A stretch of DNA of 64,000 nucleotides from NCBI GenBank assembly GCA_951804985.1, contig OX638131.1:57938351-58002350 (forward strand). The letters run 5' to 3'. The notes beneath the pieces were generated by a model. That model was not told the DNA's origin and did no database searches. It saw only the letters and a program-made list of their open reading frames with translations. This stretch comes from Dryomyza anilis (lineage: Eukaryota; Arthropoda; Insecta; Diptera; Dryomyzidae). The position numbers were made by a program, and so were the translations under genes. Shown here piece after piece: positions 14,196 to 60,937 of this stretch (position 1 is the first letter of the stretch; the number at the start of each line of letters is the position of its first letter).

Positions 14196-14448
14196 AAAAA
14201 ATATTATTAATACACATAATAATATTATTTTTATTTTTCCAATGTTATAGAAAACAGATTTAGAAAAAAAATACTTGAAAATAAATTTGAAAAAAAAATA
14301 TAGTTTATAGTTATACTTCATGAATGCCAAAATTGATTTCGTTGTTGTTTGGGTAACATTTTTGTTTCATTGAAATTTTCAATTACAATTAAATGAAATT
14401 TATTTTTTTTAATTAAAAGATAATGTTTAAATTGATTGAAAATATTTA

Positions 14449-16171
14449 ATGGCAGATGCTAATGAATTAAATGCGTATATTCAAAAGCAATCTAGCGAAT
14501 TGGACAAATTTGTTGAAAAATTATGGTCGCAATTTGTACCAACAATACTAAATAAAGATAGTACAGCATTATTAAAAGATAATATATCTAGAATTCTGCA
14601 TTTATCTAAATTAGAGGAGGCAGATAAAATAGTAGAAGAGTTACTAAATTTCCAGAATTTAAAAATTAAATCTGTTTTAGCAGAAAATGTTGAATTAGAA
14701 AGATTAGTTGACTGGTTGAGAAAACGTTTAAACGATTATTGTTTAAAACGTACAGCAGAGTTAGAAGAAACAGCTAAAATAGATGAGGAAAACATGAAAT
14801 TAAGAAATTTATTGAAAGAAAAGAATATTTCTGAGGAATCAATAAATAATTCTGTCAGACGCCAGGCAAGGGAGGAGTACGCAACGTTGGAGGAAGCGAC
14901 CAACAAAATACAGGAGTTGAACGCGCGTATTAGATATTTGAACGAGGAGGTTAAGACAGCGCACGAGACATCCTTATACCATAGAAAGTGACGACATCAC
15001 AACACAGGGCAACATGGGATTAGGCGAAGTCGCGAGATTCGTTAAAAATGCGGTGCCAGAGTTTGCAGGTGCAGACTCATCATCGCTGAGGACGGATCTT
15101 CACCGTTTTATTGAAGGATGTGAAGTGGTGAGGGCAGAACTGAAGCCTGAATAAATGAAGGAGTTTTTTAAAGGCGTTAGGGTTCGTTTACAGGGAGATG
15201 CTTTTGATTTAGTAAGTTCAAAGGAGTTTGACACAATAGATGATTTATACAATCTGTTAATGAATACGTACTTGGAATCTAGGTCAGTAGATGCCATTCA
15301 ATATGACATTGGAAAGGCATCTCAGTATCCGGGGGAAAGTATTAGATTTTTATCGAGGCGTTTGGTCGGCAGCATTAAGCACGATTAAATGTAAATATAA
15401 TGATACGAAAGAAGACGTGTTCGTTAATGAATTGAATAATTTAGTTAAAAGCTCATTTAAGTTAGGACTTCGGGATAACACTTTGCGAATGCTCATGTTG
15501 AGCAGTAAGCAAACAACACTGGAGAAATTGGTGGAAGAGGCATTGGACCATGCGACGATACAAAGGGAGTCAGCAGAGTTAACGGGCATAGACAAGTTTG
15601 GAGTCCATTTCAATGAGCCCTCATCGGCCTTCATGCCAACTAATCGTACTGCATCAGGTAGCCAAGACAATGAAAAAAATGAGACGGAAGCAGCCTATAC
15701 CTAAATGTTCTTTTTGCAAGAAGAAGGGACATCTGAGGGATGAATGTCATACACGGAGAAACACTCCGTATTGCAGTGACTGTCGTACCTATGGACATGA
15801 ACAGTGTGCAGATCGTTCGGGTCGGAATGTTGTTCAAGGACATACTGCTCCCCAAGGAAGTCAGCCACCCGTACCTCAGGTAAATGGTCAAGGTGGTATC
15901 CAGAACCAAGGCCGGGGTGCTCCAGGATTGAGATGCGATTGGTGCCATAGGGGGGACACGTCGAGGTGGCTTGTCGTGTTAAACGCGATACACAAGTTTT
16001 TCAAGGAAATAATGGTAATGGGAGTTTTGCAAACAGGCCTGCTAAATATTGCACTTGGTGCAGAAAGGACGTACATGTTATTATGAATTGTTATGCCAAA
16101 CGCAAATATGATACATGGTACAATAATAGCACTCCGCAGGGAAACTACCAGGGGCCCAGTCAAGGCCACTA
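14449..16171 (+). pseudogene. gag: gag of element B, multiply frameshifted
   Basis: Starts with MADANELNAYIQKQSSELDK (ATG at 14,449), a coiled-coil N-terminal part to 14,991. It continues in other frames through a capsid region (KEFFKGVRVRLQGDAFDLV, about 15,160; FKLGLRDNTLRMLMLSSKQTTLEKLVEEALDHA, about 15,450-15,555) and a CCHC zinc knuckle (CSFCKKKGHLRDEC, about 15,705-15,750). A second Cys/His cluster follows (CSDCRTYGHEQC), then a degenerate knuckle (CTWCRKDVHVIMNC, about 16,050-16,095). At least three frame changes and a stop at 15,151-15,153 are visible. It aligns by eye with gag of element C in the same domain order. Confidence 0.85.
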
Positions 16172-16599
16172 AACTGGGGACCCTTAGCAAATAGTGTAGT
16201 AAGGCCAGTAGTTGTAGAAGTTCCAAATAAAAATGTAGAACAAAAAGTAAAAATACATATTAATGAAGATAGAAATATTCTAACAAATATTAACTTAATA
16301 GTAATAATACACAACTTGACACGAATAATGAACATAATATAGGAACTAAGGAAATTAAAAATAAACAAATTATAAAAAAACAAATAAAGTAAAGAAAGTA
16401 AAACCAATTGAATCGGAAGTTAAAAATATTAAAATCAAGAATAATAATATCAAAAGTAAATCAAATAGAAAGGAAGTCGTAATTAACTGCCCTGAAAATC
16501 TGGGAATTGTAGATCAAACGTCTGGCAAGACTGTGGATACATTCCGTACAGGGGCGAGTATAATTTGTAATTTCAATATTTCTTTTTATTATTAGCGTT
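16172..16599 (+). other. gag-pol spacer of element B
   Basis: AT-rich, with a short coding-like piece near 16,490-16,560 (ENLGIVDQTSGKTVDT) matching the ENIVHQTSGLTVDT segment that precedes protease in element C. No further gene is seen. Confidence 0.5.
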
Positions 16600-19500
16600 A
16601 TGTGCGTTTTATCGTCAGAAATGTATAATAAATTCACGATTTGTAAAATTAAATTGTATTCAATTGCTAATAATTTTAAGAGTAAATTTATGTCGAGAAA
16701 AATAAAATTAACTTCACAATTAGGCATGCATCGTAAAATATTTAACCGGCATGGAGAGTGTTTCAAGATATCCGATATGAGTTATGTGTTCATTGAAGTA
16801 CCTTGTGAGGCAGCAAAAAATGGAAAACTTACTCTGTTAGTGGATTCTGGAGCTGAGGCCAGCCTGATTAAAGAAAATAGGATGGCACATTTGCCGAATT
16901 TTAATAAAAATATTCAGAAAGATCTGAGTGGTGCTTTAGGTGGATGCGTTAGAACCTTAGGCTCCACTAAGATTCAGCACACAAACATAGAAAACCTGAG
17001 TTTAACGCTACACGTTGTGTCACTTGAACAAGGGGTACCAGCAGATGGAATAGTCGGGCGTGACAATCTGTGGAACAGATCTATAATAAATGCGTTAAAT
17101 AAAAAAATTACATTTTTTGATGAAGACAAAAATCATCTTGTTAAATTTCCATTAAAATCATTACAAGACATAGAAAATATTAATTTTAATCAACAAATCA
17201 GGGTCCAGCCCAGAACAACCATGGTTGTATCACTGCCGTTAAGAACAAGAATTCCTATAGTTTTGTTGCACAAACAGGAAATTCAGCCAGGAGTATATTT
17301 GGGAGAGAGTTTAACAAACATTAGAAAAAATAGAATATATGCATCAATTTTAAATGCCACCGATAAGGAGGTAACCATTGATAGAAATTTCAAGCCACAA
17401 TTTTCAAATTTTAACAAATATAAAGAAGCAACAAAGGCGAGTTCTACAATAAATACAATAAACTCGGTTAATATAAAAAATAGAATTGATAAATTATTAG
17501 GGAATGTAAAGATCGATGAATCATTAAATAAAGAAGAAGTTGCATCTTTGCAAAATATTTGCTTGTCATATCATGACGTTTTTCATTTGGAAGGGGATGA
17601 ATTAACATTCACTCCGATATTAAAACATGAAATACCCACACAATGGAATCAGCCACCAATAAATCAGAAACAGTATAAACTTCCTCATATGCATAGAAAT
17701 GAGATTAATAGACAAGTATCGATGGAATTATTTCACCAAGCATGTCGCCTTGGAATTCCCCATTATTATTGGTACCTAAAGAGGGCGATAAAGATGGCAA
17801 TAAGAAATGGAGACTGGTTATAGATTTTCGAAAATTAAATGACGTCACCATCAAACAGGTATTTCCTATATCACGAATATATGAGATTTTAGACCAGTTA
17901 GATCATAGTCGGTATTTTTCAACACTAGATTTAGCCAGTGGTTACCATCAGGTTCTAGTTGAAGATTGTGACAAAGAAAAAACTGCTTTCAGTACAGGTC
18001 TTGGTCATTTCGAATTTAACAGAATGCCATTCGGTTTAACGGGGGCACCTGCCACTTTTCAAAGGATAATGAACCACATACTAACAGGCTGTTTTGACTG
18101 TTTTGTTTATTTAGATGACATAGTGGTTTATGGAAATAATTTAGAAGAACACGAGCATAGGCTATGCAAGGTTTTGCAAAAGCTGAGAGAACATAATTTG
18201 AAATACAGAGAAATGTCAGTTTTTGCGACGCGAGGTTATATATTTAGGACATAAGTGTTCTGAGTTAGGTGCTCTACCAGACCCAGCCAAAGTAAAGTGT
18301 TTAAAAAATATTCCAATTCCGAAAAATTGGATGGAAGTTCATGCATTTTTAGGCTCAATTAATTATTACAGAAAATTTATAGGAGGTATGGCGAAATTGT
18401 CATTACCAATAAACTGTTTGCTTAAAAAGGACGATAAGTTCATATGGAATGATAATTGTCAGAATTCGTTTTTAAAACTTAAAGAGGCAATTATGTCACC
18501 ACCCATACTGGCGTATCCGGATTTTAACGAACCCTTTTTGCTCACGACAGACGCCAGTAACGAAGCAATTGGCGCGGTTCTTTCGCAAGGTGAAGTTGGA
18601 AGCGACAGTCCGATCGCGTTTGCCAGTAGGTCTCTTAACGATGCGGAAACACGCTACTCTACTATAGAGAAAGAATTTTTGGCAATTGTATGGGCGACAA
18701 AAAATTTTAGGGCATATCTTTTGGGAAGACCATTTAAAATTTATACAGATCATCAGCCCCTAAAGGGTATAGCAAACTTAAAAGATCAGACATAACGTCT
18801 TGTGCGTTTCCGACGCAAATTATCGGAATATTATTTCGAAATTCATTATAAACCGGGAAAAAGTAATTTAAACGCGGATGCGCTTAGCCGCGTACCGAAT
18901 AATACTGAAAAAGTAGTTGTAGTACAAACACGTTCGAAAACCATGTAATGAGACAAGGAAGACGATAAGAAACAGTCAGAATGCGATCCTGACGATTTGA
19001 TAACAAAGGAAAATGACAATATAATAATTCTAACTGAACCTCGGGACATAGAGACGGTAATTAAAGATTTTCACGATTCACCGTTAGGTGGTCACCAAGG
19101 GGGCGTAAAAACATTTTTAAGAATTCGACAGCAGTACCGATGGAAGGGTATGCGGAAGCAAATAAAGGATTATGTGAAAAATTGTTCAAAATGCCAGGTA
19201 AACAAGAGTTCAAGGCTGACGAAGATACCAATGGTTCTAACTGATACGCCAGTCAGACCCTTTGACATAGTGTACATGGACCATCTTAACGTTTCAGGAC
19301 GATTTTTCTAAATTTATGGTTCATTGGAACGAAATCATCGTCCACTAGCTGAATATTTACGTAGTTTTGCTAAAGAGGATGGGTCAAACTGGGACCAATG
19401 GTTAAATTCTGCAATGCATGTTCATAATAACACCGTGCATACGTCGACGGGTCAAACACCATTCCGTACGTTGTACGGGTTTGACTTCGACATGCCTACG

Positions 19501-19836
19501 AATTTAAAGCGTAAATGTTCACCTTTATATAACGCAGAAGACTCCAATAAGGTACTAAAGTACCAAATACAGCGATCACACGAGATGGTCAGGCAAAATC
19601 AATGTAGGGCCAGGCAGGTGTCGAAAAAACAATACGACAAGAACTTCAACCCTATACAATTCAAACCATACGACATGGTTTTAATGGAAAACCAAACTAG
19701 GAGGAATAAGTTCTCTCCAATTTGGAAGGGACCGTACGTGGTCGCAGAGGGAAGTGGGCCAGTGACCACGACGATATTGATCAAAAACAAAGATAAGAAA
19801 ATTCACAATAATTTGTTAAAGGCATATCACAAATAG
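16600..19836 (+). pseudogene. pol: pol of element B with frameshifts, stops and integrase-core deletions
   Basis: Protease carries DSGA (LLVDSGAEASLIK) near 16,845. RT fingers begin near 17,730 and change frame at about 17,740. RT motifs LDLASGYHQV, MPFGLTGAPATFQ and YLDDIVVYG (about 18,110) are intact, and a second frame change lies near 18,215. RNase H (TTDASNEAIGAVLSQ) runs to a TAA at 18,793-18,795, after which the same frame continues. The integrase zinc finger (H-H-C-C, about 19,070-19,200) is present. The core is truncated: sequence carrying the first two catalytic aspartates is missing around 19,280-19,320. The part after the catalytic glutamate and the C-terminal module (FSPIWKGPYVV) continue to 19,836. 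Very similar to pol of element C. Inactive. Confidence 0.9.
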
Positions 19837-31693: not shown

Positions 31694-32188
31694 TGTTGTA
31701 AGTCAACATAGTGTGTTTTGGTAAGTCACCATACGTTGATATTATAAACGTATCGTGACCTACTTACGCGATGACTACTTCATGCAGTTATCGTTACGTT
31801 GCAGTAAAGTGCAACGTAGGACATATGTGTCATAGTCCAGCAAGCCAATGAACTAGCAACAGTATGAGCGAAGCTGGGTCAAACCAGCAGCAGCATGATT
31901 GGCTAAGGGCTTTATCCCTTACGGAAGCAAATAGTGAGTGGAATTTGCGCACGGCATTCTGCCGGAACATGTAGATTTGAAACATGCCTTCTTACAATAG
32001 TTAAGTTAAATTTTAAGTGAGTTGTGAAATAGAATTTAGAGGTGTAACAAGCCAAAAATATTGAGCTAAAAAGAGTTGAAATAAAGTCTAAGTTTAAATT
32101 AAAAGTATTCAAATATATATTATTTATTGGGAAATAATTAAAGTACTAAAGTAGGAGTAAGTATAATTCAACGTTGGAGATACTAACA
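31694..32188 (+). repeat. LTR 1 of element C
   Basis: 495 bp, TGTTGTAAG...TACTAACA, with TGTT/AACA inverted ends. It differs from LTR 2 at two sites (C at 31,730; T in AGTATTC near 32,108), both private to this LTR. Confidence 0.95.
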
Positions 32189-34786: not shown

Positions 34787-34940
34787 AAATGGACGAAAAT
34801 ATTGTTCATCAAACGTCGGGACTGACAGTTGATGAACAATATTTTCGCCCATTTTTTCTCCCTTCACCTTCTCCTTACAGACCAAACACGGTGGCTCAAC
34901 ATATGTATCAACGGTCACTCCCGACGTTTGATGAACAATA
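34787..34940. repeat. inverted duplication after gag, unit 1
   Basis: AAAATATTGTTCATCAA and its complement lie about 16 bases apart (arms about 25 bp with one mismatch, 34,791-34,857). The rest, to about 34,933, is an inverted copy of the pre-protease segment at about 37,000-37,090 that codes EPPCLVCKEKVKGEK. A strong hairpin is possible in the RNA. Confidence 0.8.
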
Positions 34941-34941
34941 T

Positions 34942-35023
34942 TTAACCAAGAAATATATATAAATAAATATATATATAAATAAATATATACATAAAAATAA
35001 ATACAATTTTTACTTACGGCCGA
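34942..35023 (-). repeat. second copy of the antisense gene's intron 1, unit 1
   Basis: About 80 AT-rich bases from ACCAAGAAATATATA to CAATTTTTACTTACGG, nearly the same as 42,963-43,035. On the minus strand the shared block starts at the CC|GTAAGT donor of the antisense gene and ends short of its acceptor. Confidence 0.7.
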
Positions 35024-35270: not shown

Positions 35271-36797
35271 TAGGGATGTCAATCCCGGACTATTTTTCAA
35301 TCCCGAAATTTCGGGACTAAAAAATTTGAATCCCGGGATCCCGGGATTAGTCCCGGGATTTAAAAAAATAATAGCAAAGACATAAAATAACCATATCTGT
35401 GTTTAAATAATAATCAATTATAATGCTTAAATCAAACTAAAGTCATATATTCAAATGCATCTGTTTTCAGGTTGGGTATTCAAATATGGTATACTAAATC
35501 CGCGATATATAAACCCCGTTGATCATCAAAAATTTTTTTAATACTTTTTATTTAAAATTTATTTTTTAGTACAAATATAAGAAAATTAAAATATTGAATG
35601 AACAACAAAATTTGTTATTGGGATATTGGTTTTTTGTGGAAAACAATATTTAAAAAAAAAAAAAATATAATTTTAAAAAAATAAATAGTTTTACAAATTT
35701 TGAAATATTTAAACTTTTAATTTCAACATTATTTAAGTTGTATGTGATTTAACCGGTTATTGCAACCAAATCTCAAACGACGAAGTTGACTTGTTCATGG
35801 GCAATAACTATTTTAATTTTTATTCAATGGCTGTTTAGTCTTTTTATAAAAAAAAGTTTGTTTTTAAATGCAGTGAAAAATGCAAAAATAATAAATTGCA
35901 TTTTTCTCCAAAACATTACGTATACGGAAAAAACCAAAAACGCAGTTCGAATCAGTACATTAAAATTATATAGGCATGATATGAGAAAATGATTGCCGAA
36001 CAGTGTTATTAGTCGAAAGTGACGTAATTTTTAAAAATGTGTGAATTTGTTCAAAGTCAAAAAGCATGTAATTCATTATTATTTACGGCAGTGTTTTAAG
36101 ATTTTAGTCCATTAAATCCAAGGATTGAAACCGTAGCCGAAACCGAAACCGATATCCGTTTAAAACCGATATCCATTTAAAACCGAAACCGTAATCGAAA
36201 CCGTTATACGAAAATCAGAAATAAACCGTTTCGGTTTTATACCAGTTTAAAACGGTTTTTAAAAAAGCATAAAAAGAAACAGGAAAACATATTTTATTTT
36301 ATATAGAAGATCTTAACTACAAGGCATGTTTAATGTCATTTAATAAAATTATGAATTCCCAAAATAAAATTTTTTTCTTGTACAATTTTCGGCGAGCTAG
36401 ACTAAGCTTATGTCCCATAGTGCAATGTTAAGTTATTTGAAAAATATGGAATTAAAAGAAATTTGATACAAAAACCGAAATCAAAACCGAAACCGTAACT
36501 TGAAATCGGTATACTGAAACCGTTTCGTAATAAAAACCTAAAACCGAAACCAAAACGCGGAAAAAACCGAAATCGAAACCGTTATTCGTTTAGGTTTCAA
36601 ACCTTGATTAAATGTTAGATTTACTTTTTCACAAAATGTGTACACAAACATTGAAAGACTTTTGAATAAACTATTAAAAATTGATCTACTAGCGTTTTTT
36701 GTAATCCCGAAAATCCCGGGATTTAACGATGATCCCGGGATGAGTTTTTCGGGACTGATTGGACTGAAATCCCGGGATCCCGGGATTGACATCCCTA
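35271..36797. mobile_element. non-autonomous hAT-like transposon (outer), unit 1
   Basis: 1,527 bp with inverted ends TAGGGATGTCAATCCCGG / CCGGGATTGACATCCCTA, flanked by the 8-bp duplication ATAAAGAA (35,263-35,270 and 36,798-36,805). The 8-bp duplication and TAGGGATG-type ends are typical of hAT. Both ends carry several copies of the palindromic motif CCCGGGATCCCGGG or its half, likely transposase-binding subterminal repeats. No transposase is encoded. A second, smaller element is nested inside. Confidence 0.85.
36119..36606. mobile_element. nested inner hAT-like MITE, unit 1
   Basis: 488 bp with imperfect inverted ends CAAGGATTGAAACC / GGTTTCAAACCTTG, flanked by ATTAAATC / ATTAAATG (7 of 8 bases match). 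Its subterminal regions hold many GAAACCG/CGGTTTC words, again as in hAT MITEs. No coding capacity. Confidence 0.7.
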
Positions 36798-36985: not shown

Positions 36986-37621
36986 AATATAATTGATACA
37001 TATATTGAGCCACCGTGTTTGGTCTGTAAGGAGAAGGTGAAGGGAGAAAAAATGGGCGAAAATATTGTTCATCAAACGTCGGGACTGACAGTTGATACAT
37101 ATGTTGAGCCACCTTGTTTGGTTTGTAATACAGTAGCAGGTATAATAATTCATTTCATACATTTTATAAGTATTGTGTCGATTACATTAGGGAACAAAAT
37201 AAAAAAACTAGCAGGATATGAAAAATATAAGGGAACATTTGGAGAGGAAGTAGTAAAAGTAGGGTATAGAGTAAACTACTTATTATCAAGAATATCAAAA
37301 AGTTTTGAGAATTTCGTGGTAGAATATAGTAAGAAGATTATATGCAATATGTGTGGGTTTAGTAAAAGAGGGAACCCTATAATATGCAGTAGGCAGAGTG
37401 ATTGTTTCAAACTACCTAATGTAAGTGATGTTTTCATCGAAGTACCTTGTGTGGCTGCTAAAAATGGAAAACTCATATTACTGGTAGATTCGGGAGCAGA
37501 TGCTAGTATAGTAAAGGAGGGGGCGATGACAAAATTTCCTGGTTTTGATAAAAATACTCAGAAGGGCTGCCTTTGGGAGATGCGTAAGGACATTAGGGAC
37601 AATAAACATTCAGCACAGTAG
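36986..37621 (+). pseudogene. pro: pre-protease segment and protease of element C, unit 1
   Basis: Open frame with two near-copies of a Cys-containing segment (EPPCLVC near 37,010 and 37,100; this includes CKEKVKGEKMGENIVHQ). It then reads into an aspartic protease: VFIEVPC...KLILLVDSGADASIV, with catalytic DSGA near 37,487. The frame is lost after NTQK near 37,565, and RT is in another phase. Protease would cut the Gag-Pol precursor. The same break occurs in unit 2. Confidence 0.8.
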
Positions 37622-40787: not shown

Positions 40788-42311
<1,524 letters not shown>

Positions 42312-42660
42312 TTAGGGGGTGAAGGCACCCAAGTACATGACCACCCGCGGGACGAACAGCGTCCCGATCAGCGCGCCGGCTTCCTTCTCTAAACGCACGA
42401 TTTCGCGGCAAATTAAGAGAAAAACCTCAAATGTTGGGTCATCCTTGTAATATTCGATGAGGCGATGCAGGCGTGTATCAACGCCTTCATCCCACCAATT
42501 CGCCCTGAGCGTTGTCAAATATGCCTCGAAATATTTTAGTTGATTGCTATTCCAGATGATCATAACCTGGCGGTCGCTCATCCTACCTCGAACATACTCG
42601 GTGTTGTCGTCACTGAAGTCATTATCATCAAAATTTGTGAGAATGTCTGAAAAGAACCAA

Positions 42661-42691
<31 letters not shown>

Positions 42692-43220
42692 TAATTTAAA
42701 AAAAAAATATATATATATTTAATAGAAATGAGTAATTTAAAAATCTAAATAAATTTACTAACTGTGCTCGTCTGAATGCTCGATGACTAATCCTTGTTGT
42801 CGTAACGCGTCTAGATCGCGAATTGTTAAAGGATGCTGCCTCACGGCAGGAGGTTGCTGCCTTCGGGCAGCCCGGAGCTCATCCTGCTCCTTGCGCAGTT
42901 TCTCGCGCCTGTCCTCCTGTAAGCCCTGGGCCGCAGTTAAAAACATTTGCTGAAGAATATATAACCAAGAAATATATATAAATAAATATATAATATAAAT
43001 ATATAAATAAAAATAAATACAATTTTTACTTACGGAACATGATTAAAATTGAAGTTGAATATCCAAAGAATAAACTGCAACTTAATAATTGTCGTCCATA
43101 GAAGACAGGTATGAACATTTTTAAAATAAAAAAAAATAAAAAATCGCGAATTTGACTCCGCATTTCGAACGAAGATAGCCGGCGCCGTTTTTGTAAAATA
43201 CTGAATTTGGACACTTTATA
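42312..43220 (-). CDS. antisense, intron-containing gene-like unit between pol and env, unit 1
   Basis: Function unknown. Predicted on the minus strand: 5' exon ending at 43,034 with donor CC|GTAAGT; intron 1; acceptor TTCTTCAG; exon 2 at 42,949-42,763 with ATG at 42,946 and donor A|GTTAGT; intron 2 with a long pyrimidine tract and acceptor TTCTTTTCAG; exon 3 at 42,646-42,312 ending in TAA. Exons 2 and 3 join in phase to about 172 codons. Exon 2 is basic and coiled-coil-like (ends LVIEHSDEH). Exon 3 starts acidic (NFDDNDFSDDN), then is Trp- and Leu-rich, with a hydrophobic end (GTLFVPRVVMYLGAF). Exons are GC-rich against an AT-rich element, which suggests capture of host or other foreign sequence. 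No signal peptide is apparent. An in-frame ATG in the first exon does not connect in phase, so that exon is probably 5' UTR. Confidence 0.6.
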
Positions 43221-43222
43221 AG
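43213..43222. promoter_or_regulatory. TATA-like site between antisense unit and env, unit 1
   Basis: CTTTATAAGT contains the near-symmetric TTATAA core. It reads as TATA-like on both strands, about 180 bases upstream of the antisense donor and about 60 upstream of a plus-strand GTGAGT donor (43,275). It is weak evidence for a bidirectional promoter. Confidence 0.35.
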
Positions 43223-43557
43223 TACTGAGGACAGTTCGTTAACTCACGACACATTGTTTAAATGAGGTTCTACGGTGAGTGTACGACTATAGCAAATTTA
43301 CGTTTGGACAAAATAGATATTAAATATAAAGTTGAGACTAAACGATTAAATTTGGATAAAGAAACGTTAGGTTTTTGAATTTTAAAGTAAAAAAAAAAGA
43401 AGATAAAAAATTTGGACCAGGTGGAAATTAAAATGTAAGTGTATGGAATAATTTTATGTAGTATGCTAAGGTGGGAAAGGTAGATTAACTTAGGACATAA
43501 GTGTAAATAATTATATATATAATAGATATGTATAATTATTTTTGTTTTAGGGACATT

Positions 43558-43926
43558 ATGAATAAGATCCTTATGCTGGTCCTGGTGTTGGCAGCAGCTG
43601 AAGCAGTCAACATCACTCAGACGCCGATGAACGAGACAAGAATATTTTTTGAGAAAACTACTGAGGCATTATTTTATAGTGACGAATGGACAGTGATATC
43701 TAAGTTCATACCACTGCAGTTGACGAATTTTCTGGATCTAACGAAAAAATATATGGAAGCAGCCATTGAAATGTGCCGGAAAATGAGTTCAAGCGTACCA
43801 GGAATGAATTTCGGAAGATCGTGTGAAGCAGCAATGCAAGAAACATCGTCGATAATGAGGACATTACAGAAAATGAGGGGGTTATTAAAAGAACAATTCA
43901 AAAGAATCGCCAAAAGAGGTCGCTAA
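43558..43926 (+). pseudogene. env: env of element C, unit 1, N-terminal segment
   Basis: Start chosen at 43,558 (MNKILMLVLVLAAAEA), a good signal peptide. An upstream in-frame ATG at 43,528 lies before a splice-acceptor-like TTTTTGTTTTAG|G at 43,550 and is less likely. The mature part has N-glycosylation sites (NITQ, NETR) and cysteines, and ends at a basic furin-type R-x-x-K-R site, at which the frame stops (TAA 43,924-43,926). A glycine/phenylalanine-rich hydrophobic stretch follows in another frame, as expected for a fusion peptide of the errantivirus/baculovirus F-like class. The open part corresponds to the short N-terminal subunit. The copy is broken and the same break occurs in unit 2. 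Confidence 0.75.
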
Positions 43927-44205
43927 ATTTCGTAGGTGAGGGCTTTAACTGGGCTTTCGGCGTAATGGACAATCGAGTGATCGAGAAAAGATATACAAAC
44001 ATCTGGAGGACATTGAGAACCGAGAGAGCGAAACCTATGACGTCATGAGGAAACAGGTGACGGTGATGACATCTAATTTTGGAAAACTGTCAGCACCATT
44101 GCTGGATTCTCTAAGGGAGGTGGAAGAACTACAGATGACAACACCATACAACAACAGCAGAAAATAAATAGAGATATAGATAACAAGCTCAACAAAGTAC
44201 AGTTT
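43927..44205 (+). pseudogene. env: env middle part in shifted frames, unit 1
   Basis: About 280 bases that carry coding-like sequence: a hydrophobic segment first, then a charged, coiled-coil-like stretch. It is out of phase with both flanking env frames. The downstream frame is regained near 44,120-44,160. So at least two indels separate the env pieces. Confidence 0.6.
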
Positions 44206-45540
44206 ATGTTACATTTGTTGGAAATACAGTCAACCATAAATGCTAATTTAATGGAGATTCAGGGACAACAATCAATAGAAATGGCAATAATTGACGATCT
44301 CTACAAGGGGGATCTGCATCCTACGATAATAGACCGAAAGGAACTAGACGCAATGTTGGCCCGTCTCAAATTAAGGGGCAAAGCGAATTGGTTTATTCAA
44401 CAGACTTTTGATATGCATCATTTGTCAAAGGTACGAGTTTTTCCGGACGGGGATAGTCTGATGTTCATAATTAAGACACCACTGCCGGATGATGTATTAT
44501 TTGCGTTGTACAGGATTTATCCGATCCCCATTAACATCAATGAGGAATGGGACTCGCTGGTTAAGACAAAGTATGACTACATAGCTGAGGCGGAAGATCG
44601 GAGTAGATTCATAGGATTAACGCACGAGGATCATTTAAGATGTGTTACGGTGAACCAAGAGATGGACAAGGAGATAACGCTATGTAGACGTCCGGGAACG
44701 ATTATGACGAGCAGCAATGTACTTTGTGAGGTCACGTTAATGCTACAAAGGACAGATATAGTGAATACCTGTGAACATGTAGCTATTAGGAAGAGTTCAG
44801 GGTTGGTAGTGAAACTATGGGCTTCAAACTCCTGGTTGTTCAGGTTTGACACGCCAGCGGTTTTCGAAGCGATTTGCGGAACAAACACGGCTACACTGAC
44901 GCTAGCAGGGATGGGGTGGATGTCAGTGAATGAGGCCTGCGACTTGCACAACAGAGAATTAATATTGCCTTATGAATCTGCACCAAGAATGTTCAGGAAT
45001 GTAACCTATAAAAAAGAGGAGTACACCTTGTATATCGAAAATATAAAGGGGGAATGGGGAGCGTTACGCACAGAAAATGCGTCAGTCACACTTTTGCCAA
45101 TACAGACGTCGGACCACAGCAAATTACGGTCAGCACTAAGAGATGGCCAGCGCAGTTTTGAAGATCTGAAAGCGGAAATGAGTCAGAAGCAGGAGCGGCT
45201 AGAATGGCTAAAGCATCAGCACGAGATGAAGACTTTGGGAGCATCGTACGGCGTGGTAGTGTTGGTGTTAATCTTCGTGGTATTAGCGTATTTTTGGTAC
45301 CTTCGAGTAGAATCATCGAGAAAGCTAAAATTAACAGAGTCACTGAAGGATAGGAAGACAGTAGCAACAGTAAATGCCATCAGTAGCGTAAAAATTGAGG
45401 AGAACGAGTTAGCGGAGCATATTGCATTTCGGCCAACCACAAGTCAACGAGCTGAAGTTGTTAAACAGAAACATGAGGACGAAGAGCAGAGTCGAAAACC
45501 AACCATAACGACATTGGGACCAGCTTATGGAATGATTTAG
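44206..45540 (+). pseudogene. env: env of element C, unit 1, C-terminal (membrane-anchored) segment
   Basis: 444 codons from the first in-frame ATG; the open frame actually extends upstream to about 44,101, so this ATG is probably not a native start. It shows an N-terminal helical region, several cysteines (CRRPGT, LCEVT, TCEHVA, ICGTN, ACDLHNR) in an ectodomain, and a helical stretch before a single transmembrane segment at residues about 348-368 (GVVVLVLIFVVLAYFWYL). A charged cytoplasmic tail of about 76 residues follows. The layout fits the long fusion subunit of insect errantivirus Env proteins, which are class I-like fusion proteins related to baculovirus F. Family assignment rests on architecture, position after pol, and the furin-type site upstream. 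Confidence 0.75.
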
Positions 45541-46101
45541 GGGTATGAGTATGAGGGATTCTAGAAGAAAATTCAATATATATTATAAATTAGAATTATT
45601 AATATGAGGGATTGAAAAACAAAAGAGGGATTGAAAAACAAAAAAAAAAATATAAGTATATATAAGAATAAAAAAGTGGGGAAAAAAAATAAAAAAAAAT
45701 TAAGTATTTTAGTTAAAATATCGTCGAATATGCCTAAGTTCAAGTAAACACTTCATTGCACAAAATAAAGCATAATTGCTCGCACATATAAATAAGAATA
45801 ACAACAGAATAATACAAAACAAAGCAATTACAAAGCGGTAACCTAAGAAGCTACTGTTTTGCCAACTGCAATGTTCTGTGCATTATAAACAATGTTCGGT
45901 GGTGGGGTCATTTTAAAATAGAATATGATAAATTGTTATATTTTTACCATATATTTTTTTTTAAGATAATATTCAGATATATTGATAAGACTTGTTAAGT
46001 AAACTGATAAGAGTATAATTTTTAGGCAATATCAATTATGTAAAAGAAAAAACTATTATTCATTTTAATAATAATTTTTTCTTAAAATAAGGGTGGAGGT
46101 A
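45541..46101 (+). other. 3' untranslated region and polypurine tract, unit 1
   Basis: AT-rich non-coding sequence ending in AAGGGTGGAGGTA (46,089-46,101), the polypurine tract directly before LTR 2. Confidence 0.7.
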
Positions 46102-46596
46102 TGTTGTAAGTCAACATAGTGTGTTTTGGTAAGTCACTATACGTTGATATTATAAACGTATCGTGACCTACTTACGCGATGACTACTTCATGCAGTTATC
46201 GTTACGTTGCAGTAAAGTGCAACGTAGGACATATGTGTCATAGTCCAGCAAGCCAATGAACTAGCAACAGTATGAGCGAAGCTGGGTCAAACCAGCAGCA
46301 GCATGATTGGCTAAGGGCTTTATCCCTTACGGAAGCAAATAGTGAGTGGAATTTGCGCACGGCATTCTGCCGGAACATGTAGATTTGAAACATGCCTTCT
46401 TACAATAGTTAAGTTAAATTTTAAGTGAGTTGTGAAATAGAATTTAGAGGTGTAACAAGCCAAAAATATTGAGCTAAAAAGAGTTGAAATAAAGTCTAAG
46501 TTTAAATTAAAAGAATTCAAATATATATTATTTATTGGGAAATAATTAAAGTACTAAAGTAGGAGTAAGTATAATTCAACGTTGGAGATACTAACA
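46102..46596 (+). repeat. LTR 2 (shared middle LTR) of element C
   Basis: 495 bp. Carries none of the changes private to LTR 1 (two) or LTR 3 (seven), so it looks like the ancestral or recombinant form. It serves as 3' LTR of unit 1 and 5' LTR of unit 2. Confidence 0.95.
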
Positions 46597-56652: not shown

Positions 56653-57001
56653 TTAGGGGGTGAAGGCACCCAAGTACATGACCACCCGCGGGACGAACAG
56701 CGTCCCGATCAGCGCGCCGGCTTCCTTCTCTAAACGCACGATTTCGCGGCAAATTAAGAGAAAAACCTCAAATGTTGGGTCATCCTTGTAATATTCGATG
56801 AGGCGATGCAGGCGTGTATCAACGCCTTCATCCCACCAATTCGCCCTGAGCGTTGTCAAATATGCCTCGAAATATTTTAGTTGATTGCTATTCCAGATGA
56901 TCATAACCTGGCGGTCGCTCATCCTACCTCGAACATACTCGGTGTTGTCGTCACTGAAGTCATTATCATCAAAATTTGTGAGAATGTCTGAAAAGAACCA
57001 A

Positions 57002-57032
<31 letters not shown>

Positions 57033-57561
57033 TAATTTAAAAAAAAAATATATATATATTTAATAGAAATGAGTAATTTAAAAATCTAAATAAATTTACT
57101 AACTGTGCTCGTCTGAATGCTCGATGACTAATCCTTGTTGTCGTAACGCGTCTAGATCGCGAATTGTTAAAGGATGCTGCCTCACGGCAGGAGGTTGCTG
57201 CCTTCGGGCAGCCCGGAGCTCATCCTGCTCCTTGCGCAGTTTCTCGCGCCTGTCCTCCTGTAAGCCCTGGGCCGCAGTTAAAAACATTTGCTGAAGAATA
57301 TATAACCAAGAAATATATATAAATAAATATATAATATAAATATATAAATAAAAATAAATACAATTTTTACTTACGGAACATGATTAAAATTGAAGTTGAA
57401 TATCCAAAGAATAAACTGCAACTTAATAATTGTCGTCCATAGAAGACAGGTATGAACATTTTTAAAATAAAAAAAAATAAAAAATCGCGAATTTGACTCC
57501 GCATTTCGAACGAAGATAGCCGGCGCCGTTTTTGTAAAATACTGAATTTGGACACTTTATA
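56653..57561 (-). CDS. antisense intron-containing gene-like unit, unit 2
   Basis: Same predicted exons and splice signals as in unit 1, at +14,341: exon 3 56,987-56,653, exon 2 57,290-57,104 (ATG at 57,287), 5' exon ending 57,375. I see no base difference in the coding exons. Function unknown. Confidence 0.6.
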
Positions 57562-60442: not shown

Positions 60443-60937
60443 TGTTGTAAGTCAACATAGTGTGTTTTGGTAAGTCACTATACGTTGATATTATAAACGT
60501 ATCGTGACCTACTTACGCGATGACTACTTCATGCAGTTATCGTTACGTTGCAGTAAAGTGCAACGTAGGACATATGTGTCATAGTCCAGCAAGCAAATGA
60601 ACTAGCAACAGTATGAGCGAAGCTGGGTCAAACCAGCAGCAGCATGATTGGCTAAGGGCTTTTTCCCTTACGGAAGCAAATAGTGAGTGGAATTTGCGCA
60701 CGGCACTCTGCCGGAACATGTAGATTTGAAACATGCCTTCTTACAATAGTTAAGTTAAATTTTAAGTGAGTTGTGAAATAGAATTTAGAGGTGTAACAAG
60801 CCAAAAATAATGAGCTAAAAAGTGTTGAAATAAAGTCTAAGTTTAAATTAAAAGAATTCAAATATATATTATTTTTTGGGAAATAATTAAAGTACTAAAG
60901 TAGGAGTAAGTATAACTCAACGTTGGAGATACTAACA
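60443..60937 (+). repeat. LTR 3 of element C
   Basis: 495 bp. Seven substitutions relative to LTR 2 (for example CAAGCAAAT, GGCTTTTTC, GGCACTCTG, AATAATGAG, AAAGTGTTG, ATTTTTTGG, ATAACTCAA). It is the 3' end of the array; no primer site follows. Confidence 0.95.

What the first reader, a model, noticed from the sequence alone, without database searches (positions are those of the whole stretch)
42312..43220. Antisense, intron-bearing accessory gene between pol and env
A minus-strand unit has two donor/acceptor pairs, phase-compatible exons (about 172 codons), GC-rich coding composition, a TATA-like site upstream and an AATAAA downstream. Introns can persist in a retroelement only if they are antisense to the genomic RNA, and that is the orientation found. 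Captured host gene or evolved accessory gene are both open. A spliced antisense gene is known in HTLV-1 (HBZ), but no homology is claimed. I do not recognise the protein.
Basis: partly seen in the sequence, partly recalled or inferred. Interest (0 to 1): 0.87.

Follow-up and report, generated by a model that had tools for sequence, protein, structure and literature searches.

The report
Backward spliced gene in retrovirus-like elements
A family of retrovirus-like elements, probably from an insect, carries a small intron-containing gene written backwards between its polymerase and envelope genes; many copies and related families keep it as a protein-coding gene, although what the protein does is unknown.

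Summary
The window holds a tandem errantivirus-like provirus (LTRs, pol, Baculo_F-type env). The own-genome search gave 46 matches to the unit; in 38 fetched places it lies with env, usually between pol and env, in antisense. In 40 aligned copies each splice site is kept in 38-39. Shared differences show purifying selection in the antisense frame (omega-like 0.39, P=2e-4; other five frames 0.63-1.41). Related families (pol pieces 82-90% identical) carry a 52-65% identical protein; exon-3 dN/dS is 0.09-0.14 against 1.4 and 1.8 off-frame.

No homologue, fold or host source was found, and there are no RNA data. Most likely it is a trans-acting accessory protein, HBZ-like in layout but not shown to be related. 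Function is inferred.

The parts
43034..43163 (-). Exon 1: leader and likely start codon at 43040-43038; CDS part 43040-43034 (7 nt). The 5' end is not defined.
   Evidence: ATG 43040 in 38 of 40 aligned copies; donor and ATG also visible in related-family copy L067. Against: L028 and L029 lack it but are open from the upstream ATG 43118.
42950..43033 (-). Intron 1, GTAAGT...CAG, phase 1
   Evidence: GTAAGT in 39 of 40, acceptor AG in 38 of 40 copies
42763..42949 (-). Exon 2, 187 nt here (192 nt in most other copies, 228 nt in the duplication subfamily): frameshifted in this window
42647..42762 (-). Intron 2, GTTAGT...CAG, phase 1
   Evidence: GTTAGT in 39 of 40, CAG in 39 of 40 copies; lengths in all three classes mod 3
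42312..42646 (-). Exon 3, main conserved domain and stop codon
   Evidence: dN/dS 0.09-0.14 in 10 pairs against L063 and L064
43215..43220 (-). TATAAA, candidate promoter of the antisense gene
   Evidence: 33 of 34 rows, one gap; not conserved in L067; no start-site data
43262..43550 (+). Candidate env leader: ATG 43262, strong donor at 43275, acceptor at 43550
   Evidence: donor score and acceptor; donor sequence ACGGTGAGT in 29 of 34 rows, acceptor AG in 31 of 34; donor not kept in L067
37530..40787 (+). pol reading frame (RT, RNase H, integrase)
43558..45540 (+). env, split over two reading frames; Baculo_F domain in the second
31694..32188 (+). LTR 1 of the tandem element (LTR 2 at 46102-46596, LTR 3 at 60443-60937); CTTT on both outer sides
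56653..57381 (-). Same antisense gene in the second tandem copy (exon 3 56653-56987, exon 2 57104-57290, start codon at 57381)
   Evidence: no substitution between copies over 41600-46101
34924..35019 (-). Second copy of the intron-1 stretch, without the exons, in the gag-pol spacer
   Evidence: 91% over 96 columns

Best explanation
The window holds a decayed tandem copy of an insect-type endogenous retrovirus (Errantivirus-like Ty3/gypsy element) whose family carries a protein-coding accessory gene on the minus strand between pol and env: three exons, a start codon in exon 1, two phase-1 introns, and a 177-aa (189-aa in a subfamily) product. Inferred working: the integrated DNA is transcribed leftwards from a promoter near 43.2 kb that diverges from env; the RNA is spliced twice and translated. 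The sense genomic RNA holds the gene only as its complement, so its introns are not removed during retrotransposition, and splicing of env would take the region out of env mRNA. Shown here: family-wide presence, conserved splice signals, purifying selection in the antisense frame, conservation in related families. Inferred: transcription, splicing, promoter. The most likely role (about 0.4 within this explanation) is a trans-acting regulatory or host-antagonising protein.
For: 46 own-genome matches; exon 2 with env in 38 of 38 fetched places, pol end within the stretch in 29. 15 of 40 copies open throughout, splice sites kept in 38-39 of 40 each. Shared changes 25N:22S, omega-like 0.38, P=0.001, other five frames 0.69-2.24; with 40 copies 36N:28S, 0.39, P=2e-4. 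Same count for env 19N:12S, 0.45, P=0.03 and pol end 6N:5S, 0.33, P=0.07. 36-nt in-frame duplication in eight copies. Related families: dN/dS 0.09-0.14 for exon 3 and 0.30 for exon 2; both intron phases kept.
Against: No RNA or protein evidence. Private changes are also skewed (0.65-0.68), so part of the signal may be bias. One opposite-strand frame shows a weaker skew (0.63-0.69 for shared changes, P 0.06-0.15; 0.72 for all changes, P=0.03). The start codon is not certain. The TATA is not kept in L067. No homologue, domain or fold, so the role is unsupported by sequence.
Confidence: 0.88

Rival explanations
1. A host gene fragment captured by the element, or inserted after integration, and carried passively; the open frame is leftover host coding sequence.
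For: Exons are more GC-rich than gag and pol; the gene has introns like a host gene; no viral homologue found.
Against: Present at many scattered places with pol and env; frame constrained among copies and between families; six divergent places are not clearly host loci. An ancient host origin followed by use in the element is not excluded.
Confidence: 0.04
2. An antisense RNA matters rather than a protein: the minus-strand transcript pairs with genomic RNA or feeds small-RNA silencing, and the open frame is secondary.
For: Antisense transcripts without coding capacity are described for Drosophila micropia and TART (passages of PMC7264820); the TATAAA is invariant within the family.
Against: Constraint follows codon structure and introns diverge more than exon 2. 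Both roles could coexist, as described for HBZ RNA (passages of PMC10186651).
Confidence: 0.04
3. Two separate short reading frames (exon 2 unspliced; exon 3 from its internal ATG 42581) instead of one spliced gene.
For: Exon 2 ends in a stop inside the donor, and exon 3 has an internal ATG giving 89 aa.
Against: Donor and acceptor of intron 2 kept in 39 of 40 copies; the same phase and split codon in L064 and L067; the exon-3 part before the internal ATG is also conserved in L063 and L064.
Confidence: 0.03
4. Chance open frames in GC-rich spacer DNA.
For: TATAAA, AATAAA and GT/AG motifs are common in such AT-rich DNA; an A-run on the plus strand lies beside exon 3.
Against: Chance tests and conservation across copies and families; no plus-strand frame is open through exon 3.
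Confidence: 0.01

Closest known systems
HBZ of HTLV-1 and APH-2 of HTLV-2 (deltaretrovirus antisense genes)
   Same: Minus-strand, spliced, protein-coding accessory gene of a retrovirus-like element (passages of PMC10186651).
   Different: Their transcripts start in the 3' LTR; here the best candidate promoter is internal, between the gene and env. No bZIP or other Pfam domain. Different virus family; no homology shown.
Plant antisense aORFs: Grande gene23, Retand TRP28 ORFs, RIRE2
   Same: Antisense accessory ORF of a Ty3/gypsy element downstream of pol; gene23 has its own promoter and a nuclear product (passages of PMC7264820 and PMC11963269).
   Different: The word intron does not occur in the main text of either paper; no TRP28 match here; ours lies before a Baculo_F env.
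sORF1 and sORF2 of Drosophila MDG1-group LTR retrotransposons
   Same: Small accessory proteins of insect LTR elements (passages of PMC11952523).
   Different: Sense orientation, single-pass membrane fusogen (sORF2) or helix-turn-helix (sORF1); ours is antisense, spliced and without a clear membrane segment.
ORF3s of bdelloid rotifer LTR retrotransposons; ORFs captured between pol and env
   Same: Additional ORFs near the env position, typically expressed from spliced messages (passages of PMC5408684); a review notes capture between pol and env in general (passages of PMC6431247).
   Different: The passages seen name no antisense ORF with introns; the rotifer ORF3s carry named domains, which ours lacks.

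Membership tests
Errantivirus-like Ty3/gypsy element (the carrier) | LTRs with short target-site duplication | tested here: met
   Three LTRs; CTTT before the first and after the last
Errantivirus-like Ty3/gypsy element (the carrier) | pol with RT, RNase H, integrase and a Baculo_F-type env | tested here: met
   Pfam matches above cut-off
Errantivirus-like Ty3/gypsy element (the carrier) | Place in the Errantivirus clade of an RT tree | not tested
   No tree was built
Deltaretrovirus antisense genes (HBZ, APH) | Minus-strand spliced coding gene | tested here: met
   By sequence only: splice sites and frame conserved; no RNA
Deltaretrovirus antisense genes (HBZ, APH) | Transcription from the 3' LTR | tested here: inconclusive
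   Conserved internal TATAAA; no start-site data
Deltaretrovirus antisense genes (HBZ, APH) | bZIP domain (HBZ itself) | tested here: not met
   No Pfam match
Plant antisense aORFs (Retand/Grande) | Antisense ORF between pol and the 3' LTR | tested here: met
   Position and strand, though before env
Plant antisense aORFs (Retand/Grande) | TRP28 domain (PF04195) as in Retand | tested here: not met
   No Pfam match
sORF2/FAST-like insect accessory genes | Sense-strand short transmembrane protein | tested here: not met
   Antisense; highest 19-residue hydropathy mean 1.59, borderline at the C-terminus
Captured host gene | Host homologue outside the element | tested here: inconclusive
   185 exon-wise matches, not all listed; six divergent ones fetched, none clearly a host locus, but L066 has neither pol nor env in 4.3 kb and L065 only a 30-residue pol match; follow-up search did not complete

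The most novel reading that the evidence does not exclude
Insect endogenous retroviruses have independently evolved an HBZ-like arrangement: a divergent internal control region drives env one way and a twice-spliced antisense accessory gene the other way. The accessory gene is kept as an old, exchangeable module: its synonymous divergence from related families (exon 3 dS 1.4-2.2, exon 2 1.06) is several times that of their pol (0.28-0.49) and env (0.12-0.25) pieces, as expected if element lineages swap accessory alleles by recombination in an arms race with host silencing.
Probability: 0.3. Interest if true: 0.9.

Novelty: new variant of a known kind. Interest (0 to 1): 0.8.

Why it matters
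In the papers I saw, antisense protein genes of retroelements are described for deltaretroviruses, HIV-1 and plant retrotransposons. My ten answered paper searches listed no spliced antisense protein gene in an insect LTR element; the library lacks most subscription journals. A conserved one shows that env-bearing elements of this kind can have a complex-retrovirus gene layout, gives a way for introns to survive retrotransposition, and offers a testable candidate for a regulator or counter-defence protein. It also warns that antisense reads over such elements need not come only from piRNA precursors.

Tried and rejected
Searches of the large protein database with the antisense protein gave nothing, but neither did the env control, so that absence says nothing. 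Viral-contig scans with exon 3, pol and env gave no relative. PDB sequence searches gave one hit at E 1.5 and none; Pfam and NCBIfam gave nothing above cut-off for the antisense protein. AlphaFold models were poor (pLDDT 46.8 and 53.7); Foldseek against PDB gave 17 matches, best E 3.9. dN/dS between the two window copies was impossible (no substitution in 4.5 kb). The first 43-copy selection count was contaminated by three rows without a true exon 3 (L052, L056, L057), seen and redone. The first codon-usage run had one training piece out of frame and was redone; the expected fractions's env row were likewise redone.

Rows left out of the 40-copy count: L043, L045, L046 (rearranged or missing an exon), L044 (split), L018, L027, L029, L035, L040 (99.5% or more identical to a kept row), L047 and L048 (no exons in the stretch), L059 (no exon 1 found), L052, L056, L057, and the divergent L063-L068. 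L001-L008 are the window's own two copies and six places refetched with longer flanks. Of 22 env places without an antisense match, I fetched 16.

Full report
What is there. The window lies in a 656.6-Mb genome in 69 contigs, organism not named. From 31694 to 60937 it holds a tandem LTR element: three LTRs of about 495 bp, repeat units 99.3% identical over 14.9 kb, and CTTT on both outer sides. pol has RT, RNase H and integrase and env has the Baculo_F domain; by established knowledge this is the layout of insect endogenous retroviruses (Errantivirus), and 'insect' rests on that alone. The outer LTRs differ at 9 of 495 positions. The two copies have no substitution over 41600-46101, only a 13-nt length difference, so the tandem duplication is younger than the insertion. 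gag, pol and env are each split over frames in both copies (my reading of the ORF lists).

The observation. In shuffled introns a consensus donor and acceptor both lie at the boundary in 1.5e-4 (intron 1) and 4e-4 (intron 2) of cases; the two open frames have a joint chance of about 9e-4 in a fixed frame.

Other copies change the model. The own-genome DNA search gave 46 matches (132 candidates, 40 scored, a lower bound), two of them the window's own copies. I fetched 38 places with about 2.2 kb on each side. Exon 2 is found in 38 of 38, exon 3 in 37, env in 38 and the end of pol in 29; the order and orientation are those of the window except in rearranged places such as L046, where exon 2 is inverted. 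Alignment shows that the window copy lacks 5 nt of exon 2 that the others have, which shifts its frame. In other copies the frame runs from ATG 43040 in exon 1 through both introns to the stop, 177 codons. A 36-nt in-frame duplication in exon 2, carried by eight aligned copies, makes it 189 codons. In all, 15 of 40 aligned copies are open throughout: ten with 177 and five with 189 codons. The start is not beyond doubt. Counted from the upstream ATG 43118, 9 of 35 rows are open, including L028 and L029, which lack ATG 43040; counted from 43040, 10 of 35 are open, including L032, L033 and L038, which lack ATG 43118. The stretch between the two shows no clear constraint (15N:5S, ratio 0.83), and in L067 the 43040 ATG and its donor are visible while the 43118 ATG is not and the stretch between carries a one-base gap. 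I prefer 43040.

From the env side, the genome search scored 40 of 664 candidates. Twenty-two places had no antisense match; I fetched 1.2 kb at 16 of them. Fourteen hold antisense exons, three of these without a full exon 3 (L052, L056, L057); L048's stretch ended on the pol side, but an exon-3 match lies just beyond it; L047 shows none. So the gene belongs to the family and travels with it.

Selection. I counted codon variants one base away from the commonest codon, separately for variants in two or more copies (shared) and in one (private). In 30 copies, with mutation weights from introns and flanks, shared changes are 25N:22S where 75% N is expected: ratio 0.38, P=0.001; the other five frames give 0.69-2.24. 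With 40 copies and equal weights: 36N:28S, 0.39, P=2e-4; other frames 0.63-1.41. Against a clean reading: private changes are also skewed (0.68 and 0.65, P 0.02 and 0.01), and one opposite-strand frame is weakly skewed (0.69 and 0.63 for shared changes, P 0.15 and 0.06; 0.72 for all changes, P=0.03). By exon, shared changes are significant in exon 3 (19N:18S, P=0.002) but not in exon 2 alone (6N:4S, P=0.22). Pairwise, close pairs (pS under 0.03) have pN/pS 1.27 and more distant ones 0.39-0.50, as expected if selection acts while the element replicates and insertions then decay. The same count, with equal weights, gives env 19N:12S, 0.45, P=0.03, and the pol end 6N:5S, 0.33, P=0.07, so constraint is of the same order. 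Splice sites are kept: donor 1 39 of 40, acceptor 1 AG 38 of 40, donor 2 39 of 40, acceptor 2 39 of 40. Intron 2 lengths fall in all three classes mod 3, so read-through could not keep the frame.

Related families. The protein search of the own genome gave 185 exon-wise matches (220 candidates, 150 scored, list cut), some only 51-70% identical. Six divergent places were fetched. L063 and L064 have pol pieces 82-90% identical beside them; L067 and L068 have env pieces mostly 75-90% identical (L068 also a pol piece at 28%); L065 has only a 30-residue pol match and L066 neither. The antisense protein there is 52-65% identical. For exon 3, five window-family copies against L063 and L064 give dN/dS 0.09-0.14 in all 10 pairs with dS 1.4-2.2, near saturation; the off-frame control (L010 against L063) gives 1.40 and 1.85. 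Exon 2 gives 0.30 (dS 1.06) for L011 against L064, and in L064 and L067 both acceptors, donor 2 and the phases are kept. L065, L066, L067 and L068 contain stops in the antisense match. dS of pol in L063 and L064 is 0.28 and 0.49, and of env in L068 and L067 0.12 and 0.25. Within the family, the stretch from the end of pol to exon 1 is also more diverse (3.0-4.4% mean pairwise) than pol (2.1%), env (1.8-2.2%) or the env leader (1.8-2.2%). The simplest reading is that accessory cassettes are older than the pol/env combinations that carry them now and were exchanged by recombination; unequal substitution rates are the alternative. No trees were built.

How it probably works. Inferred: the integrated copy is transcribed leftwards from about 43.2 kb, where TATAAA is in 33 of 34 rows (one gap). 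To the right lies a leader with ATG 43262 (32 of 34), a strong donor at 43275 (29 of 34) and an acceptor at 43550 (31 of 34) before the env ATG, so env and the antisense gene may diverge from one control region. In L067 neither the TATAAA nor this donor is kept, so the promoter claim is weak. Because the introns are antisense to genomic RNA they are not spliced from it. The window's version of the protein has pI 5.3, a charged N-terminal part and no clear transmembrane segment; the exon-3 model is all-helical but of low confidence. I place a trans-acting regulator or host antagonist first by analogy with HTLV antisense proteins (passages) and Grande gene23 (passages). That step is inference only.

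Known and new. Plant antisense ORFs and deltaretroviral antisense genes are the nearest kinds; sORF1 and sORF2 show that insect LTR elements have small accessory genes, on the sense strand (passages). Of ten papers opened I saw passages only; all others as listings. I rate it a new variant of a known kind.

Limits. One genome, one family plus a few related copies, no RNA, no outside homologue, no fold. The protein database gave nothing for env either, so the absence of relatives is uninformative.

Noticed in passing
window 34924-35019 and 42940-43035: The intron-1 stretch recurs in the gag-pol spacer on the same strand, 91% over 96 columns, without its exons and joined to an inverted piece like that at 36993-37096. 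It looks like a template-switch patch.
   Followed up: partly
window 35271-36797: Nested element with inverted ends TAGGGATGTCAATCCCGG and an 8-bp duplication ATAAAGAA inside a partial second gag piece; it resembles a hAT element (name recalled).
   Followed up: partly
window 31694-60937: LTR-internal-LTR-internal-LTR tandem with one outer CTTT pair; copies far more alike than the outer LTRs. Recent unequal recombination or an assembly duplication.
   Followed up: partly
window 40788-43163 and matching loci: The pol-to-exon-1 stretch is about twice as diverse among copies as flanking pol and env and much more diverged between families: possible module exchange.
   Followed up: partly
window 14389-19836: A related element (pol 72% identical at DNA level, gag 35% at protein level) with no env or antisense-gene match in the window.
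   Followed up: no
L049, L050, L051, L053, L054, L055, L058, L062: Copies with a 36-nt in-frame tandem duplication of the charged module in exon 2, perhaps a younger subfamily.
   Followed up: partly
window 43262-43558: Conserved short ATG-bearing leader with a strong donor before env, separate from any 5' leader donor: env may have its own internal promoter.
   Followed up: partly
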